From a virus: a stretch of 55,656 nt of DNA. Position numbers and translations under genes: made by a program. The notes below the pieces were generated by a model. The model was not told where the DNA came from, made no database searches, and saw only the letters and a program-made list of their open reading frames with translations. Positions 3,285 through 29,610 of this stretch are shown here, one piece after another. Location: positions 1 to 55,656 of the IMG/VR virus record IMGVR_UViG_3300050821_004348. One strand, 5' to 3'. The stretch's first letter is position 1; the number at the start of each line of letters is the position of its first letter.

Positions 3285-3356
3285 TCGACCCGGTGAGATT
3301 CGAACTCACAACCAAGAACGTATGAGATTCCTGCTCAACCATTGAGCTTCGGGTCG
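3285..3356 (-). tRNA. tRNA-Met(CAT)
   Basis: A full cloverleaf can be drawn. The 7-bp acceptor stem is CGACCCG/CGGGTCG with discriminator A, the D arm is GCTC/GAGC, and the T arm is GTGAG-TTCGAAT-CTCAC. The anticodon arm GGAAT-CTCATAC-GTTCT has wobble closing pairs and anticodon CAT. No CCA is encoded. A CAT anticodon could also be a lysidine-modified Ile tRNA or an initiator; nothing visible separates these. It stands alone, 26 kb from the main tRNA cluster. Confidence 0.9.
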
Positions 3357-14205: not shown

Positions 14206-14703
14206 TCACTCCTCTGTAGTCCATTCTCTTTGTTCTACAGGATTGCCATTAGCGAAGTACGTGTCATTTTGAATCCATAAGCCACAATCGCAACATCTTA
14301 TGCAATAACTTTGATAGGACAGACTCTCTCCAAATAGTTTGTGATGTTTTCGTTTATGAGGACACTTGCTCTGTAATTCCTGAATCAGTTTTGCAGTAAT
14401 AGATTGAGTCCGCCTCAACCTATCCATCTTCTTTTGAATTTCATCTCTATCATACTCCTCTAACTTCTTAAGTTCTGTATTCAATTTCTCAGCGACGTAA
14501 TCTGCAAATTCTTTGGCTTTCGTATAATGAGGAAAGAAATTAAATTCTTTTCCATCTTTGAGGCGGACGACTACACGAGTGGTGGATTGGCTCGTCATAT
14601 AAACCTGCCCAACCGATTCTGGGTCTATATAGACTTGCTCCTCCATAGCGTGGAGGCCATAAGGACTCTCCCTCCAGTCTGCATCTGTGATATGGATAAG
14701 CAT
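14206..14703 (-). CDS. uncharacterised protein with C-terminal zinc-ribbon-like motif
   Basis: A 165-residue protein. A beta-rich N-terminal half (VVVRLKDGKEFNFFPHYTKA) is followed by a charged helix (KLNTELKKLEEYDRDEIQKK) and a C-terminal Cys/His cluster CPHKRKHHK ... CIRCCDCG that looks like a zinc ribbon. AAGGGG precedes the ATG, immediately after the end of the Thg1-like reading frame. Confidence 0.5.
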   Translation of the reverse strand: MLIHITDADWRESPYGLHAMEEQVYIDPESVGQVYMTSQSTTRVVVRLKDGKEFNFFPHYTKAKEFADYVAEKLNTELKKLEEYDRDEIQKKMDRLRRTQSITAKLIQELQSKCPHKRKHHKLFGESLSYQSYCIRCCDCGLWIQNDTYFANGNPVEQREWTTEE

Positions 14704-14712
14704 TATTCCCCT

Positions 14713-15524
14713 TTATGCTGTCTTCGGTTCGTGTCCATAGTAAATGACGAAGGGACGATTGATGATAGTAGAAAAGACTGGCATATCTATAGGCACACAC
14801 TCCGTCCTCTCCACCATTAGATTGGGGTCACTCCTTGCCTCGTGTTTCTCTGGTAGTGTATCTAACTCTTCCGTTGTGAACTTACGAGCAGATTTCTTTG
14901 AATATAAGTTCCCCGTTTGAAGAAAGTAGGATAGTTATTCCAATTAATCTTCCTCTCCATAAGCATATCCAACATCTCACCAGTATGCTTGTTATGGAGT
15001 TCTTTGTGGGAATAGACACTTTGAGCAGCCATAGAAATACTATTCTTCGTCGCATCCCATTCCCTCCACAGAAAGCAGTTGGCTCCTTCTTCTAGTGTTG
15101 GAACGTTCCAGACACGAGCATCAAAGTGGGGGAGCTTTTCTTGGAGGGCACTCACACCCCTGTCAAAGTAAAATGGTAATTCACAAAAGAACAGAACCGA
15201 AGCCATCCCTGCTAAAACCGATTCCATCTTCTGGATGCGACCATTGAAGAAGATTTCACTTTTAGAATTATCACTATACCAAGTAAGAGTGATTTCATCA
15301 CTCTGGGTGTAGCCCATACAAGCATTCGTTTCCTTGACAAGATACTTAGTTAGTCTAATCATAGACATAGCAAATCGTTCGTCATAAGGACGATTCATAT
15401 CTTTGGTGAACTTAGAGAATGAGCGTCCATCCAATCTTGCCATTGCTGGAATGAGAGGAAGTAGCTTTCGTCCTGCTACTTCCATTTCATAAGCCTTCAC
15501 CCTATCCCCGAGAGCGTCATTCAT
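14713..15524 (-). CDS. tRNA-His guanylyltransferase (Thg1-like), with an apparent -1 frameshift
   Basis: A Thg1-family 3'-5' nucleotide-adding enzyme. MARLDGRSFSKFTKDM (D32) and TQSDEITLTW (D76, E77) carry the metal-binding residues, and FFNGRIQKMESVLA follows as in phage and bacterial members. Frame 0 stops at 14862 after RGTYIQR. The sequence KSARKFTTEELDTLPEKH then continues in the -1 frame to a TAA at 14713, with the family's usual C-terminal block. One extra A in the AAA at the junction would restore a 270-residue protein. It is either one missing base, a real frameshift, or frameshifting. The enzyme would add G-1 to tRNA-His or repair tRNA 5' ends. Confidence 0.8.
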
Positions 15525-17211: not shown

Positions 17212-17478
17212 CTAGAAGGACTCAAGGAGTCCTTCTTCCTCGTCGGGTTCTTCTACTTCTTTGGCTTTATTTATCTTTTCTTTCACATCTTTACTTGTCT
17301 TGCCCTTTTGGATAGGGACGTCTGTGACTTCTTCGCCTCTCGATTCTGCTAATCTCTTGAATCGACTGCTGGGGTTTTCATTCTGGCAGTGGATGAAGTA
17401 GGTGAACATGACTGTCGCATTGGGAATGACGTATTCGGGGAGACTGCGGTTCTCTTCACCACTATAGAAGATAATCAT
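17212..17478 (-). CDS. uncharacterised partner of the DpdA-like gene
   Basis: An 88-residue protein (MIIFYSGEENRSLPEYVIPN ... MFTYFIHC) whose start overlaps the DpdA-like stop as ATGA. I recall short proteins beginning with a similar YYSGGG...PE-VL...hML-Y segment next to DpdA-type genes in other phages, so a shared role in the modification pathway is plausible but unproven. C-terminal half is Lys/Glu-rich and likely disordered. Confidence 0.5.
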   Translation of the reverse strand: MIIFYSGEENRSLPEYVIPNATVMFTYFIHCQNENPSSRFKRLAESRGEEVTDVPIQKGKTSKDVKEKINKAKEVEEPDEEEGLLESF

Positions 17479-18365
17479 ATTACTCTGCTTTTCTTCTTAT
17501 CATTGGGCTTGAAAGCCCAGGGATACTTGGGAAGGGATTTTCTTAATTTCTCAAAGAAAAGAAGGTTGGCTAACTTTCGACACGAGTGGCTATTGATAAC
17601 ACCCTCGTTATTATCGTCACCCAGTGGCACTTCAATTTCTGTCAGCCATTCTAAGAGTATCTCCCTCGCCCCGTCTGAGAGTGTTCTAATGTGCTTATCC
17701 TGGTCACCAACTTTGGACTCATTGGAAACACTTATCATATAGGGTTGCGTGCGGAAGGAGAACTTTCCGTCTCTTTTATGAGGGACGAGGACATTCCCGT
17801 AGGCACCGACCTTCGTCCACGTTGCGGAATCAACGGATGTCCAAGGCCACCTCCACATCAAGTCAAACGCCGTCATCGCAAATCCGTGCGTCCTTACCAG
17901 TGGAAGATAATCATTGGAGGCGGGACAGAGGCGAGTGAAAAGAGCATCCCCCCAATCCAAATACATATTCTTCGTCACCCCCTGCCCCAGCCCTCCTATG
18001 CCTAGATAAGTGTATCCCGCCTCTAAGTGCTTATCTATCCACTCTGCACTTGCTCCATAGTGGATAACTGGGATAGGGTGGAGTCCGTGTTCATTCTCTA
18101 GATACTTTAGAACCTTCCAGGAACGCTCTGGATCGTAGATGACATCGATGTTGGCGTAGAAGTCAATGGACTTGGGGTAGGCTTTGATAAAGGAGGCGTA
18201 CCTATCGCAGTAGGCGTAGAACTCGGAGGAATCGTAATAGGCGTAGCCAGCTTTGTTCCCCATCTTTCCAACATAGATGTTCCACAAAGAATGCGCCCCG
18301 CTGTCAAGGAACACCAGTTTAAATTGAGGATCGGGTCGATTCTCTGCGGTAGGTGGAAGTGGCAT
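17475..18365 (-). CDS. dpdA: DpdA-like 7-deazaguanine DNA transglycosylase (TGT superfamily)
   Basis: A 296-residue protein with TGT-type active-site blocks. VFLDSGAHSLWN (D21) is the base-recognition Asp, and FYANIDVIYDPERSW follows. PVIHYGASAEW then YTYLGIGGLG gives the barrel strands, and HGFAMTAFDLM ... WTSVDSATW (D179) supplies the likely nucleophile. Phage DpdA enzymes exchange guanine in DNA for preQ0 or a derivative. Adjacent folE, queD, queE, queC and queF genes strongly support that role over tRNA modification. It overlaps the QueF gene by 47 bp. A GTG start nearer the DSG motif is possible. Confidence 0.75.
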   Translation of the reverse strand: MPLPPTAENRPDPQFKLVFLDSGAHSLWNIYVGKMGNKAGYAYYDSSEFYAYCDRYASFIKAYPKSIDFYANIDVIYDPERSWKVLKYLENEHGLHPIPVIHYGASAEWIDKHLEAGYTYLGIGGLGQGVTKNMYLDWGDALFTRLCPASNDYLPLVRTHGFAMTAFDLMWRWPWTSVDSATWTKVGAYGNVLVPHKRDGKFSFRTQPYMISVSNESKVGDQDKHIRTLSDGAREILLEWLTEIEVPLGDDNNEGVINSHSCRKLANLLFFEKLRKSLPKYPWAFKPNDKKKSRVI

Positions 18366-19758
18366 GAATGGACACTCCTCCTCTAGGGGTTTGGATGACT
18401 GTGACAGTGACTTCGTTAGGATGAATAGAGTCTACTACGTGTTGAAGTAAGTCGTGGGATAGTCTTTCACAGAAGACGCCTGTTTCTCGCAAACTCTGCA
18501 GTTTGAGTTTAAGGGACTTAGATTCAATACATCGTTCATCTGGCACATAGTCAATTTCTACTGAGTAGAAATCTGGTTGATTTGTAATCGGGCAATTGTG
18601 AACTATAATACCATTGGCGAAGAAGCATTCCGTATCTTCCACCTCCATATTGTAGACATCTGCTTTGCCTGCTGATTCTACAGAAATAACTTTATGATTC
18701 AAAGATGGTAAAGTAATCTTCTTTCTTAGACTTTTGGTTTCTTTGTCTGTTCTTACTTTCCCTCCTGCTTTCCTCACCCAATCACAGATAGACGTGGAAT
18801 GGACACCATAGTAGTCACAGAGTTCATATATAGTGTATCCCTTTTCATAATATCCTAAACATTCGGTATACACTTTTCTCTTATTAACGTGGTCAGCATT
18901 ACCGAGTAAAGATTCTCGTTGTGTTCTTTTTTTTACTAAATGACCTATCCTATTTATTATTGTTGAGACGTCACATTCATATTTTCGCCCTAAATCAGCA
19001 AAAGACGCCCCGTTTTCATATTGTATTACTAAATCATCAATGTTAAGAAATGCTTCATAGCCGTATTGTTCTAAACGATGATAAGAGGAATGCACACCCT
19101 CATGCAAGATTTCTAAATTAGATGGTGTATTATCATAGTGGTTGTGATTCTTATGATGTACATGCTCCTCATGTGATATTGATTCGCCGTAGACACATTC
19201 AGCTACTAAACGATGCCTCCCTTTGCCTTTTATTGTATCCCTTTGACGTTGGTGAGAAACCAACCTCATAGAAGGTTTTAGGTCTTTAGCTTGAATCCAA
19301 ATATACCAATGCCAAGAGGCTCTGCCTTCTTTAACTAGAAATAGGTGGTCTGGTGTGCAAGTGATTTCTTTCTCAACCCTCTTCCTTGGTTCCCCTTTCT
19401 TCGTTCTCCCTTGCAGTAAAGAATATTTAACTCGCACTACACCAACTTGGTCTCCAGTTTTTCTTACATTCGTAAATTTCTTGGCTACTGCTGTATTATC
19501 ATTCTGGTCAAAAGAAAAGACAACACCATCAAACCCTACAAGGTCCTTTATGGCTCTACCAAAAGGGTAAATCGTTTCATCAGTTGCCACATCTATCAAT
19601 GTATCTCCGTGGAGGCATCTTGCACTGCATTCATTGGAAATCATTTTGACGCGAGAGATGTGACCGGGACGAGGAAATGATTCCAAGAGTTCCGTCGGTT
19701 CTGTGACACCGGACTTACCGAGAAGGGTGAGGTCTTTCTTAAATTGTTCATCGTTCAT
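18319..19758 (-). CDS. queF: QueF-type 7-cyano-7-deazaguanine enzyme interrupted by an HNH intein
   Basis: A 479-residue precursor. Residues 1-47 and 389-479 join to a 138-residue QueF: LTLLGKSG, LLESFP, CPITNQPDF with the catalytic Cys and Asp, then ESKSLKLKLQSLR, VFCERLSHD and TPRGGVSIH. The QueF FHE motif reads FCE here, so the usual His is Cys. QueF reduces preQ0 to preQ1, while QueF-L relatives make archaeosine; the altered motif leaves the product open. Residues 48-388 are an intein inserted directly before the catalytic Cys. With the DpdA-like enzyme this predicts a 7-deazaguanine derivative in phage DNA. Confidence 0.8.
   Translation of the reverse strand: MNDEQFKKDLTLLGKSGVTEPTELLESFPRPGHISRVKMISNECSARCLHGDTLIDVATDETIYPFGRAIKDLVGFDGVVFSFDQNDNTAVAKKFTNVRKTGDQVGVVRVKYSLLQGRTKKGEPRKRVEKEITCTPDHLFLVKEGRASWHWYIWIQAKDLKPSMRLVSHQRQRDTIKGKGRHRLVAECVYGESISHEEHVHHKNHNHYDNTPSNLEILHEGVHSSYHRLEQYGYEAFLNIDDLVIQYENGASFADLGRKYECDVSTIINRIGHLVKKRTQRESLLGNADHVNKRKVYTECLGYYEKGYTIYELCDYYGVHSTSICDWVRKAGGKVRTDKETKSLRKKITLPSLNHKVISVESAGKADVYNMEVEDTECFFANGIIVHNCPITNQPDFYSVEIDYVPDERCIESKSLKLKLQSLRETGVFCERLSHDLLQHVVDSIHPNEVTVTVIQTPRGGVSIHATSTYRRESTRSSI
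18595..19617 (-). mobile_element. intein with HNH endonuclease inside QueF
   Basis: A 341-residue in-frame insertion with class 1 intein features. It begins CLHGDTLIDV (Cys1). Block B is ITCTPDHLFLV (TxxH) and the end is GIIVHN, followed by Cys+1. An HNH-type homing endonuclease sits in the middle: EEHVHHKNHNHYDNTPSNLE. Two helix-turn-helix-like segments follow (ASFADLGRKYECDVSTIINRI; YTIYELCDYYGVHSTSICDW), which probably bind the homing target. Cys+1 doubles as the QueF catalytic nucleophile, so the host enzyme is inactive until splicing is complete. Confidence 0.85.
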
Positions 19759-19762
19759 GGGT

Positions 19763-20644
19763 CTATCCTTTGATAAGATTGAAGAATTCTGCTCGACAGG
19801 AGGGTTCTTTCATAAACACCCCTGTGAGGCTGCTGGTCACTGCAACTATTCCAGGTTTTTGAATTCCACGACAGGACATACAAGAGTGCTGGCATTCAAT
19901 AACACAGGCACTCCCCTTGGGCTGCAAGTATTTATCGAGGGCATCCGTTATCTGCTCCGTTAATCTCTCTTGCACCTGGAGCCTACGGGCAAAGACATCA
20001 ACCAGACGTGACAACTTACTCAACCCAAGTATCTTCCCCTTGGGAATGTAGGCAACGTGAGCAATCCCCGAGCATTCTAACATATGGTGCTCACACGTGC
20101 TACTGAAGGGAATCCCTCTCAATAACACCATCTCATTACAAGCTCCTTCTGTGAAGCACTTGAAGACGTCTTCAACATTCTGTTGATAGCCAGAAAAGAG
20201 TTCTTTATAAGAACGAGCTACCCGAGCAGGCGTCTCCAGAAGACCTTCCCTTGTCGGGTCATCTCCAATAAATTGGATAATTCGGCGGATATTATCTTCA
20301 ATTCCTGCCCCTCCTACTGGGTTCTCCCTCTCCCACGGCATAGAAACCCACTTCCCTTGCCAGTGTTCATCCTTATCTAACTTGTCCACAAGTGCATAGA
20401 AGGGACGTTGAGGGTAACGACTACACCAATCTGTCATCGTCGCCCCAGAGTCAATGATGTCATCTACAAAAACATCTGCCTGTGCTGGATTTTCAACTAC
20501 TAAGGAAGACGGATGACGAGCGTGGCAGATGAGGGCTGCTTTGATGCCACCATTGGGGATGCCGTAGATGTTCTTCCCTGTGAGGGGAAGGCTCTTCGCT
20601 CGCATATAAAGTTCGTCGTAAGAGAGGGAGATGACTTGATTCAT
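19763..20644 (-). CDS. folE: phosphoribosyltransferase-like domain fused to GTP cyclohydrolase I
   Basis: A 293-residue fusion. Residues 1-105 look like a small PRTase: GIPNGGI, then VFVDDIIDSGATM (59-70), the PRPP-binding loop. Residues about 115-293 are GTP cyclohydrolase I: CEHHML (C184, H186, H187), GLSKLSRLVDVFARRLQVQERLTEQI and CQHSCMSCRG (C258), which supply zinc and substrate residues. FolE makes dihydroneopterin triphosphate, the first step to preQ0. The role of the PRTase-like domain is unknown; it might be degenerate or act on a purine in the same pathway. ATGA overlap with queC. Confidence 0.8.
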   Translation of the reverse strand: MNQVISLSYDELYMRAKSLPLTGKNIYGIPNGGIKAALICHARHPSSLVVENPAQADVFVDDIIDSGATMTDWCSRYPQRPFYALVDKLDKDEHWQGKWVSMPWERENPVGGAGIEDNIRRIIQFIGDDPTREGLLETPARVARSYKELFSGYQQNVEDVFKCFTEGACNEMVLLRGIPFSSTCEHHMLECSGIAHVAYIPKGKILGLSKLSRLVDVFARRLQVQERLTEQITDALDKYLQPKGSACVIECQHSCMSCRGIQKPGIVAVTSSLTGVFMKEPSCRAEFFNLIKG

Positions 20645-21354
20645 TCTGGTTTCTTAGGAAGAGGTCCAGTGTATTGGTAAGGGATGGGGTCTTCGATTCC
20701 AAGCAGTTGGAAAGATTCTCTGCGTTCGCAGCACGCTCCGCAACGCCCACAAGAAACCTCATTATCGGTATAACAAGTCCGCGTGTACTGATAAGGAGGA
20801 GGGGCAGTGAGTGCGAATCCTGCTTTAAGGATGCCTAGTTTATTCGTATACAGGAACGGACACTCTAATGTGATACCAGGCTCATTGTCTTCCCACTTGG
20901 TTGCTTTTCCAATGGCATTCTGCATAGCTTCAATAAAGGCTGGACGGCAGTCTGGGTAGCACGCAAAATCTCCAGCATGAGCACCGAGCCACACTTCACT
21001 ACATCCCTCACTTACTGCTATCCCAGTAAGAATAGACAGGAAAATCATATTCCTATTTGGCACGACTGTCTGACGCATATTCTCTTCTTCATAATGCCCC
21101 TCTGGGATAGGTCTCTCGTCCGTTGCGATGAGAGCAGATTTGAAACTGCCCATTACAGCAGATAAGTCCAGCAAGCGGAAGGGAACACTATAGTAGTCGG
21201 CTACCTTCTTGGCAGCGATATTCTCCCATCGTCCGTGACGGCTTCCGTAGTAGAAGCCGACGGCTAGGACTTCTTTGGCTCCGTGCTTGTCAACAGCAAC
21301 AGCGAGGGCAGTGGAAGAATCCATTCCACCGCTTAACGCGCACACACATTTCAT
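20641..21354 (-). CDS. queC: QueC, 7-cyano-7-deazaguanine synthase
   Basis: A 237-residue N-type ATP pyrophosphatase. It starts MKCVCALSGGMDSSTALAV with the SGGMDSS P-loop (residues 8-14), and VPNRNMIFLSI and WLGAHAGDFACYPDCRPAF follow. The C-terminal zinc site is SCGRCGACCERRESF. It converts 7-carboxy-7-deazaguanine to preQ0 with ATP and ammonia. The start at 21354 has GGAGG and overlaps the upstream stop codon; the ATG at 21366 is too early for that SD. Between folE and queE in the modification cassette. Confidence 0.9.
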   Translation of the reverse strand: MKCVCALSGGMDSSTALAVAVDKHGAKEVLAVGFYYGSRHGRWENIAAKKVADYYSVPFRLLDLSAVMGSFKSALIATDERPIPEGHYEEENMRQTVVPNRNMIFLSILTGIAVSEGCSEVWLGAHAGDFACYPDCRPAFIEAMQNAIGKATKWEDNEPGITLECPFLYTNKLGILKAGFALTAPPPYQYTRTCYTDNEVSCGRCGACCERRESFQLLGIEDPIPYQYTGPLPKKPE

Positions 21355-21617
21355 GATATCCTCCATTCATTCGCAAAGATGATATCTTTCATTGACGATA
21401 GGGTTGTTGTATCTGGGATTAGGAACTTGCCATCTGAAGACCAGTTTGTCGTATCCTTATTCTTTTCGTAGTATTTAGTCAAAGCCTCTTTGGGAGTCGT
21501 TCCCATCTCTTTTCCTAGAACCATATGCGTCCACCAGCAGACGCCCCACTGGTTTCGAAGGAGTATCCAATACTCCTTCGAGTGCCACCACTTTATCAGT
21601 TTCTGCCAAAGAGACAT
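21351..21617 (-). CDS. uncharacterised Trp-rich 88-residue protein
   Basis: A small protein with an unusually Trp-rich N-terminus (MSLWQKLIKWWHSKEYWILL ... WGVCWWTHM). This may be a membrane-surface helix. C-terminal part polar. It lies inside the modification cassette, overlapping the start of queC, but no link to that pathway is visible. Confidence 0.45.
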   Translation of the reverse strand: MSLWQKLIKWWHSKEYWILLRNQWGVCWWTHMVLGKEMGTTPKEALTKYYEKNKDTTNWSSDGKFLIPDTTTLSSMKDIIFANEWRIS

Positions 21618-22626: not shown

Positions 22627-23364
22627 CTACTCTAAACCAACGAGTTTATGGATTTGTATGGTGAGTCGGTAATCAGTGTGCTTCAAGCACGCATCTGCGG
22701 CTGCTTTGAGGTGGAGTTTATTCCGTTCCTCATCCTGCTCGTCCAAAGGTTGAATCCAAACCTGTCCTTTGAATCCTTTCCAAGGGCGAGCAACCCTAAC
22801 ACCCGCACCTAAACTATCGGTGGGAAGCCCGTCCTCTGGGTCTATCTTATCATAGGCAACGATATATTTCAAGTGGTCTATGAAAGGTTTCAGCCTTTCA
22901 TTTATAGAACCTGTTTTGGGGGAGCAGACAAGGGTGAAGGTATAGTGAGGTGTTCTGGGGTCTGACTGAGGGACGTATTCTGTATTGTCCGGCACGAAAG
23001 GAAATAGAGTGCCATTCGTCTCAATTTGGATTTTGTAACCCAGGTCTTTGGCTAGTCTATCCATTAGAGGAAAGATATTCTGTCGCAGGGGTTCCCCTCC
23101 TGTCAATACCACCAATCCAGGATTGGGCATGAGAGATTGAACTTTAGCAACAATCTCCGGAACGGAGAGGAGGTGACGACCAGTGGTATAGTCGGAATCA
23201 CAGGCGGGGCACGCTAAATCGCATCCTGCTGTACGAATAAACACCGCTGGAGTACCAGCGAAGGGTCCCTCGCCTTGAAGGGTATACCAGACGTGAACGA
23301 CGTCTAAGTTTCCGTCGGGGTCGTTTACGGGCTTCTCAATTGGTTGCATATTCAAGGGAATCAT
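22627..23364 (-). CDS. queE: QueE, 7-carboxy-7-deazaguanine synthase (radical SAM)
   Basis: A 245-residue radical SAM enzyme. LQGEGPFAGTPAVFIRTAGC then CDLACPACDSDYT carry the CxxxCxxC iron-sulfur motif (C48, C52, C55) with the N-terminal extension typical of QueE. VVLTGGEPLRQN and IQIETNGT are the SAM-binding strands, and SPKTGSINE and WIQPLDEQDEE the C-terminal blocks. It turns 6-carboxytetrahydropterin into 7-carboxy-7-deazaguanine. AAGGAGTAAAA precedes the ATG, and the gene follows queD by 2 bp. Confidence 0.9.
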   Translation of the reverse strand: MIPLNMQPIEKPVNDPDGNLDVVHVWYTLQGEGPFAGTPAVFIRTAGCDLACPACDSDYTTGRHLLSVPEIVAKVQSLMPNPGLVVLTGGEPLRQNIFPLMDRLAKDLGYKIQIETNGTLFPFVPDNTEYVPQSDPRTPHYTFTLVCSPKTGSINERLKPFIDHLKYIVAYDKIDPEDGLPTDSLGAGVRVARPWKGFKGQVWIQPLDEQDEERNKLHLKAAADACLKHTDYRLTIQIHKLVGLE

Positions 23365-23366
23365 TT

Positions 23367-23807
23367 TTACTCCTTAGTAAAATCACTCCAACAAGATGGA
23401 GTTTCATAAATACGAACGTTGACGATTTTGTAAGGTTTGAGTTTTTCTACTATTGCGAAGTGAAGTTCTCTTGCCATCTCTTCCGCAGTAGGATTAACTC
23501 CATTGATATGCGTCCCTTGATAGCATCCCATTACATATGGAGGAATTTCTTCTGTGTCGTGTAGGAACTTGAGTAGAGGGTCTTTGTAATTGAGAAGAAT
23601 ATTGTGATCCCAATAGGTATCGATGAATCCTTTCACCACGTCCTTCAAATCAGCAAAATCTATTACCATCCCTAATTTATTCAAAGTTCCATAATTGACA
23701 GTGACTTCGGCTATTCCATGATGTCCGTGAACATTCTTACACTTGCCGCCGTGCCCCAGAACCCGATGTCCGTAATCAAATTCAAATCTTTTGGTGACGG
23801 AGAACAT
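23367..23807 (-). CDS. queD: QueD, 6-carboxytetrahydropterin synthase
   Basis: A 146-residue member of the PTPS/QueD family. FEFDYGHRVLGHGGKCKNVHGHHG holds the three zinc histidines (H14, H27, H29) and the catalytic Cys (C23). GMVIDFADLKDVVKGFIDTYWDHNILL is the signature following block, and NPTAEEMARELHF and NVRIYETPSCWSDF end the enzyme. It converts the FolE product to 6-carboxytetrahydropterin. First gene of the modification cassette in the transcription direction, directly after the terminator at 23821-23860. Confidence 0.9.
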   Translation of the reverse strand: MFSVTKRFEFDYGHRVLGHGGKCKNVHGHHGIAEVTVNYGTLNKLGMVIDFADLKDVVKGFIDTYWDHNILLNYKDPLLKFLHDTEEIPPYVMGCYQGTHINGVNPTAEEMARELHFAIVEKLKPYKIVNVRIYETPSCWSDFTKE

Positions 23808-29278: not shown

Positions 29279-29351
29279 GCCGGACGACGGGACTCGAACC
29301 CGCACACCAGGATTCACAATCCTGTACTCTAGCCAGTTGAGCTACGCCCGG
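29279..29351 (-). tRNA. tRNA-His(GTG) without an encoded G-1
   Basis: Acceptor stem CCGGGCG/CGTCCGG (one G-T wobble), anticodon arm CAGGA-TTGTGAA-TCCTG with GTG, T arm GCGGG-TTCGAGT-CCCGT, discriminator C73. The base before position 1 is T, so the G-1 normally required by histidyl-tRNA synthetase is not in the gene. The Thg1-like enzyme at 14713-15524 could add it. Confidence 0.9.
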
Positions 29352-29440: not shown

Positions 29441-29515
29441 TCGGGGTAGACGGATTTGAACCGCCGACTCCTTGCTCCCAAAGCAAGTGCTCTAGCCAAA
29501 CTGAGCTATACCCCG
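29441..29515 (-). tRNA. tRNA-Pro(TGG)
   Basis: Acceptor stem CGGGGTA/TACCCCG with discriminator A; anticodon arm CTTGC-TTTGGGA-GCAAG (TGG); T loop TTCAAAT. Confidence 0.9.
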
Positions 29516-29539: not shown

Positions 29540-29610
29540 TGCGGAATAGCGGAATCGAACCGCTGACACCAGCTTGGAGGGCTGGCTCAATGCCACTCTG
29601 ACAATTCCGC
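29540..29610 (-). tRNA. tRNA-Gly(TCC) with C at position 33
   Basis: Acceptor stem GCGGAAT/ATTCCGC with discriminator A; anticodon arm CCAGC-CCTCCAA-GCTGG. The anticodon is TCC but position 33, almost always T, is C. T loop TTCGATT. Confidence 0.8.

What the first reader, a model, noticed from the sequence alone, without database searches (positions are those of the whole stretch)
18595..19617. Intein exactly before the catalytic cysteine of QueF
The 341-residue HNH intein starts with Cys and ends VHN, and its Cys+1 is the QueF nucleophile in CPITNQPDF. I know of no described QueF intein. Insertion at the active-site residue is a classic intein target, and it makes the hypermodification pathway dependent on splicing. 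A redox-sensitive or conditional splicing switch could delay DNA modification.
Basis: partly seen in the sequence, partly recalled or inferred. Interest (0 to 1): 0.8.

Follow-up and report, generated by a model that had tools for sequence, protein, structure and literature searches.

The report
Mobile intein inside phage QueF enzyme
A self-splicing, mobile protein insert sits directly in front of the catalytic cysteine of QueF, an enzyme this phage probably uses to modify guanines in its DNA; related inserts sit at the same residue in at least six other phage QueFs, and inteins of several types sit at an equally essential cysteine of the partner enzyme QueE in fifteen phage contigs.

Summary
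Window 18319-19758 (-) encodes a 479-residue precursor: QueF N-part (47 aa), a 341-aa intein (18595-19617) and QueF C-part (91 aa). The +1 residue aligns to the catalytic cysteine of solved QueFs. The intein has class 1 splicing residues (C1, TxxH, D, H-N|C), an HNH endonuclease and helix-turn-helix segments, and its model matches solved inteins. Joined exteins pass the QueF family cut-off; the precursor does not. A syntenic phage (L150) has the same QueF uninterrupted.

The intein is not unique. Six more distinct QueF inteins at the same codon were found in uncultivated viral contigs, none in species genomes. Intein and extein relationships disagree, as expected of a homing element. Unexpectedly, the upstream enzyme QueE carries inteins before the third iron-sulfur cysteine in 15 viral contigs, of several unrelated types; two phages carry both.

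Interpretation is partly supported. QueF activity should require splicing (inferred). The proposed redox or timing switch has no support in QueF: the only nearby N-extein cysteine (-4) is not conserved. No held paper mentions QueF or QueE inteins. Splicing was not tested. Verdict: a new member of a known kind, in a newly recognised host pathway.

The parts
18319..19758 (-). QueF precursor ORF, 479 aa (N-extein, intein, C-extein)
19618..19758 (-). N-extein, QueF residues 1-47, ending ...SNECSAR
   Evidence: gap-free alignment of the joined exteins to L150 QueF
18595..19617 (-). Intein, 341 aa, CLHGDT...IIVHN
19249..19617 (-). N-terminal HINT (splicing) part: Cys1 (block A), T88-x-x-H91 (block B); boundary approximate
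   Evidence: alignment with TerL mini-inteins; model
18718..19248 (-). Homing endonuclease region: HNH followed by predicted helix-turn-helix segments; boundaries approximate
   Evidence: absent in TerL mini-inteins
19108..19221 (-). HNH_3 match (precursor residues 180-217)
   Evidence: 27.0 bits vs cut-off 24.8
18595..18705 (-). C-terminal HINT part: block F (D320 VYNMEV), block G (H340-N341)
18592..18594 (-). Codon of Cys+1 (precursor C389), the QueF catalytic nucleophile
18319..18594 (-). C-extein, QueF residues 48-138 plus stop
17475..18365 (-). DpdA-like transglycosylase (phrog_887), overlaps the QueF 3' end
19763..20644 (-). FolE (GTP cyclohydrolase I) with an N-terminal phosphoribosyltransferase-like stretch
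20641..21366 (-). QueC, uninterrupted
22627..23364 (-). QueE, uninterrupted (CDLACPACDSDY)
23367..23807 (-). QueD (PTPS family)

Best explanation
A phage QueF gene carries a class 1 intein with an HNH homing endonuclease. After translation, intein Cys1 attacks the Arg47-Cys48 bond (N-S acyl shift), the QueF nucleophile Cys389 (+1) takes the N-extein by transesterification, Asn341 of the intein cyclises with help from His340, and an S-N shift joins Arg47 to Cys389. This yields a 138-aa QueF whose active-site Cys was itself the splicing nucleophile (mechanism inferred from conserved residues). The endonuclease is inferred to cut intein-free queF alleles near the codons for the conserved CPxT active site, so that the intein is copied in, and imprecise loss is selected against because only precise removal keeps the enzyme. 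Spliced QueF then acts with FolE, QueD, QueE, QueC and DpdA to make and insert a 7-deazaguanine, probably dPreQ1 or dG+, into phage DNA (inferred from the families). Sequence, site, family membership and the mobility pattern are shown; splicing, cutting and the DNA base are not.
For: Pfam and NCBIfam matches; Cys+1 equals the catalytic Cys of 4f8b, changed to Ala in 4fgc; joined exteins pass the QueF-II cut-off, the precursor does not. All seven QueF inteins keep C1, TxxH, D320, H340-N341 and the HNH residues H154, H155, N163, H176. The AlphaFold model of the intein (pLDDT 81.6, 7-row alignment) matches solved inteins (probability 1.00). QueF is uninterrupted in syntenic L150 and in L093. Mobility: intein-bearing QueFs as one clade are rejected, AU p 3e-11, and 6 label changes are needed on the 53-row tree; L264's intein is closest to L021's (63%) but its extein to L266's (57%); window intein 46-52% vs extein 31-36% identical to five of the six others. 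Intein GC 38.1% vs extein 44.6% and genome 45.5%.
Against: No splicing, cleavage or DNA-modification data exist. -1 is Arg rather than the usual Leu, which could slow the first step. The N-terminal intein model matches below cut-off (21.6 vs 24.5 bits). QueF's usual His before the conserved Glu is Cys here, so catalytic activity is less sure than fold. The phylogeny rests on about 150 columns with long branches; one ancient insertion with many losses is not strictly excluded.
Confidence: 0.9

Rival explanations
1. The intein is a conditional switch: splicing responds to thiol redox state or to infection stage, so that QueF and DNA modification are delayed or gated.
For: The MoaA intein of Pyrococcus abyssi is trapped by a disulfide between an N-extein Cys and Cys1 (review PMC10663303). 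The window N-extein has a Cys at -4. QueE inteins have Cys at -3 by virtue of the CxxxCxxC motif.
Against: The -4 Cys is absent from the other QueF inteins and from the intein-free relative L150; the cysteine in QueE is there because of the cluster motif, not the intein. Patchy distribution and horizontal movement are explained by homing alone.
Confidence: 0.06
2. The intein is splicing-dead, so the phage makes no functional QueF and relies on preQ0 or a host QueF.
For: No activity data; Arg at -1 is unusual among the compared QueFs.
Against: Open frame of 479 codons with every splicing residue conserved in seven divergent copies, and extein kept at 60% identity to the intact L150 QueF; a dead gene would decay.
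Confidence: 0.05
3. One ancient insertion into phage QueF followed by many losses, without homing between lineages.
For: All inteins at this codon are one family with the same HNH-HTH layout.
Against: Intein and extein groupings conflict: L021+L264 (100/99) for inteins, L264 with L266 and intein-free L118 (100/96) for exteins; the window intein is more like distant phages' inteins than its extein is like their exteins.
Confidence: 0.08
4. An assembly or binning artefact.
For: All copies are uncultivated viral contigs.
Against: Seven distinct sequences, one of them found identical in two samples, all in frame, most within a shared gene order.
Confidence: 0.01

Closest known systems
Phage terminase large subunit (TerL) inteins, including mini-inteins L004, L009, L014
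   Same: Same splicing blocks, e.g. GDTL...TxxH...GKADVYNMEV...HN|C; 33-36% identity over the alignment. Known phage inteins cluster in nucleic-acid enzymes near active sites (PMC5050341).
   Different: Host protein is QueF, not terminase; these particular TerL copies lack the HNH-HTH insert.
MoaA intein of Pyrococcus abyssi (radical SAM enzyme)
   Same: A precedent for an intein in a cofactor-pathway enzyme with a nearby extein Cys (PMC10663303); comparable to the QueE inteins found here.
   Different: QueF inteins lack a conserved N-extein Cys; MoaA is an unrelated host protein. Its exact site was not compared here.
B. subtilis QueF (4f8b, 4fgc, 5udg) and Streptococcus phage Dp-1 QueF
   Same: Same enzyme family and catalytic Cys and Asp; Dp-1 DNA carries dPreQ1 (PMC6884629).
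   Different: No intein; window QueF has Cys in place of the His before the conserved Glu.
PhoVMA and TliVMA endonuclease-associated inteins, Npu/Ssp DnaB inteins (7qst, 7qss, 4o1r, 6frg)
   Same: Among the best structural matches to the model of the window intein.
   Different: Different host proteins; about 11-16% sequence identity.

Membership tests
Intein, class 1 | In-frame insert in a conserved protein, with intein-free alleles known | tested here: met
   L150 and L093 uninterrupted; gap-free junction alignment with L150
Intein, class 1 | Nucleophilic first residue, C-terminal His-Asn, and Cys/Ser/Thr at +1 | tested here: met
   C1, H340-N341, C+1, invariant in seven
Intein, class 1 | Block B TxxH and block F Asp | tested here: met
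   T88xxH91 and D320 invariant
Intein, class 1 | HINT fold | tested here: met
   Pfam PF14890 above cut-off; predicted model matches solved inteins
Intein, class 1 | Protein splicing activity | not testable with these tools
   needs expression
HNH homing endonuclease | HNH motif and DNA-binding segments | tested here: met
   HNH_3 27.0 vs 24.8 bits; weak HTH matches in the window and in its relatives
HNH homing endonuclease | Cuts the intein-free allele | not testable with these tools
   only indirect: patchy distribution, tree conflict
QueF (preQ1 synthase, TIGR03139) | Family score of the joined exteins | tested here: met
   90.4 vs cut-off 86.9 bits
QueF (preQ1 synthase, TIGR03139) | Catalytic Cys and Asp (CPxTxQPD) | tested here: met
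   alignment to 4f8b and 4fgc
QueF (preQ1 synthase, TIGR03139) | His before the conserved Glu | tested here: not met
   Cys here; Met, Cys or Gly in many phage QueFs. Filed as a QueF-family protein, not as a proven preQ0 reductase; QueF-L not excluded
QueF (preQ1 synthase, TIGR03139) | NADPH-dependent reduction of preQ0 | not testable with these tools
   needs assay

The most novel reading that the evidence does not exclude
Inteins at the essential cysteines of QueF and QueE form a thiol-sensitive control layer over phage DNA hypermodification: modified-base synthesis starts only once both precursors splice in a reducing cell.
Probability: 0.05. Interest if true: 0.8.

Novelty: new member of a known kind. 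Interest (0 to 1): 0.5.

Why it matters
It adds two host genes (queF, and queE at the third cluster cysteine) and one pathway, 7-deazaguanine DNA modification, to the known range of inteins. Unrelated inteins repeatedly reached the same essential cysteine of QueE, which makes a clean natural test of why inteins favour catalytic residues, and of whether splicing limits when a phage can protect its DNA. The QueF set offers intein-plus and intein-free pairs (window/L150, L020/L093) for direct comparison.

Tried and rejected
Full-length precursor model from a 4-row alignment: pLDDT 53.9, discarded. Redox switch in QueF: not supported by cysteine conservation. Bacterial QueF inteins: the genome scan returned 40 matches to N|CPxTxQPDF; those in QueF-like frames read as natural sequence (mostly TCNCP), the rest were chance frames, none an intein. 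QueF inteins in deposited phages or plasmids: none covering the query. QueE inteins in gut phage records MT836584 and MT839497, suspected from where the alignments started: both uninterrupted. Group I intron in queC of L002: none found. The pattern scans missed L002 although it matches; the match lies across the boundary of a stored stretch (L244 starts at contig base 14308), so counts are minima. Close relatives of the window extein by single-sequence scan: none; the alignment scan found L150.

Full report
1. The thing itself. The reverse strand at 18319-19758 holds one open frame of 479 codons. Pfam places QueF at residues 395-473, the intein splicing domain at 121-388 and an HNH_3 endonuclease at 180-217, each above its curated cut-off. 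NCBIfam adds the intein C-terminal region above cut-off; the N-terminal region model scores 21.6 against 24.5 bits. Junctions fall at residues 48 and 389, giving a 341-aa intein at 18595-19617 and 47 + 91 extein residues.

2. The junction is the QueF active site. The C-extein starts CPITNQPDF. Its first Cys aligns to chain position 56 of B. subtilis QueF 4f8b; chain 4fgc has Ala at that place and is otherwise alike. From established knowledge, this is the Cys that forms the thioimide with preQ0. Joined exteins score 90.4 bits against the QueF-II cut-off of 86.9, while the precursor scores 78.6. L150, a viral contig with the same gene order (queD, queE, queC, folE, queF, dpdA-like, clamp-like), has a QueF uninterrupted at this point and identical at 67 of 108 aligned residues.

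3. Splicing and homing machinery. Across seven QueF inteins the invariant residues include C1, T88 and H91 (TxxH), D320, H340 and N341, and the HNH residues H154, H155, N163, H176, H180. Relatives show Pfam HTH matches, mostly below cut-off, after the HNH. Compared with TerL mini-inteins, the QueF inteins are the same splicing frame with an HNH-HTH block inserted. The intein model (pLDDT 81.6, 7 rows) matches solved inteins with probability 1.00, led by endonuclease-associated VMA inteins, GyrA and DnaB inteins. I therefore take it as a class 1 intein with a probably active endonuclease; neither activity was tested.

4. It recurs. Protein and pattern searches of uncultivated viral contigs gave QueF inteins at the same codon in L002, L020, L021 (identical in L022), L262, L264 and L266. 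Most phage QueFs are uninterrupted: among the 80 best relatives of L021's extein only the two copies of L021 itself had the intein. None was found in 84,980 species genomes by pattern, nor in deposited phages or plasmids by protein search. Counts are minima: the scan missed L002 because its match lies across the boundary of a stored stretch.

5. It moves. On a 53-row QueF tree the label needs six changes; the window pairs with intein-free L150 (100/93) and L020 with intein-free L093 (100/100). Holding the seven together is rejected, AU p 3e-11. Inteins L021 and L264 group (100/99), but the L264 extein groups with L266 and intein-free L118 (100/96). The window intein is 46-52% identical to five others whose exteins are 31-36% identical to its own; the sixth, L266, is divergent (36% intein, 39% extein). 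Intein GC is 38.1% against 44.6% in the extein and 45.5% in the genome. Homing between QueF lineages explains this best.

6. The partner enzyme is hit too. In L002, QueE has a 316-aa intein between the second and third Cys of CxxxCxxC: CNLRCKH|CFGIREG...VHN|CDTTY. A pattern scan gave QueE inteins at this exact point in 15 contigs (L234, L239, L240, L242, L244 = L002, L245, L246, L247, L248, L249, L251, L254, L255, L256, L257), 150 to 339 aa long, many pairs under 30% identical. Among those scanned, types include HNH and LAGLIDADG endonucleases; two are 150 and 157 aa long, the size of mini-inteins. So several independent inteins reached one codon. Two phages carry both a QueE and a QueF intein: L002, and the contig of L254 and L262, about 1 kb apart. 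The window's own QueE is uninterrupted. Roughly 2 of about 80 cluster-motif matches near phage QueFs were interrupted.

7. Function. The window cluster FolE, QueD, QueE, QueC, QueF, DpdA-like matches phages that carry 7-deazaguanines in DNA. Hutinet et al. (PMC6884629) report dPreQ1 in phage Dp-1, which has QueF, and warn that QueF and QueF-L are hard to tell apart by sequence. Window QueF has Cys where QueF usually has His before the conserved Glu, so dPreQ1 or dG+ is the likely product but not shown.

8. The switch idea. A disulfide between an N-extein Cys and Cys1 gates the P. abyssi MoaA intein (PMC10663303). The window has a Cys at -4 only; the other QueF N-exteins do not share it. I give the switch 0.06. 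QueE inteins, with a Cys at -3 in every case because of the cluster motif, are the better place to test it.

9. Novelty. No held paper links inteins with QueF, QueE or their products; the few papers that hold both words were incidental by their titles and counts, and the two opened were. The mycobacteriophage survey lists terminases, RecB, RDF, nucleotidyltransferase, thymidylate synthase, helicase, methylases and others, not these enzymes, in the passages read. This is a new intein allele in a new host gene: a new member of a known kind, made more interesting by its recurrence and by QueE.

Noticed in passing
L234, L239, L240, L242, L244, L245, L246, L247, L248, L249, L251, L254, L255, L256, L257: QueE genes with inteins of several unrelated types, all directly before the third Cys of the radical-SAM CxxxCxxC motif (CxxxCxx|C...HN|CDTxY); no paper found on QueE inteins.
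   Followed up: yes
L002:3391-4758 (+): queC has an in-frame insert of about 228 aa with two LAGLIDADG domains at the TSDF/GAAYPDC motif, but no HINT domain and no Rfam group I intron; how the enzyme is restored is unexplained.
   Followed up: partly
L020:798-3482 (-): Family A DNA polymerase with an HNH/NUMOD3 intein (splicing domain and intein_Nterm above cut-off) in the same phage that has the QueF intein.
   Followed up: partly
L003, L005, L006, L008, L017: TerL genes broken inside an intein: one ORF ends after the N-terminal intein half, and a separate later ORF holds the C-terminal half plus TerL C-extein, like split inteins of fractured genes.
   Followed up: partly
QueF set, including window precursor residue C430: Phage QueFs replace the usual His before the conserved Glu with Met (31), Cys (19) or Gly (19) in many of 133 rows; possible change of chemistry.
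   Followed up: partly
window 19763-20644 and L021:5146-6078: FolE carries an N-terminal phosphoribosyltransferase-like extension of about 110 aa (weak phrog_8995 match in the window; similar-looking sequence in L021).
   Followed up: no
window 14862-15524: Thg1-like tRNA-His guanylyltransferase gene in a phage.
   Followed up: no
window 3285-3356, 29279-29351, 29441-29515, 29540-29610 (all -): Four tRNA genes (Rfam), three of them clustered.
   Followed up: no
L002 and L075 (both IMG/VR sample 3300033145): Intein-bearing and intein-free phage QueFs come from the same metagenome sample number, so possible homing partners may coexist.
   Followed up: no
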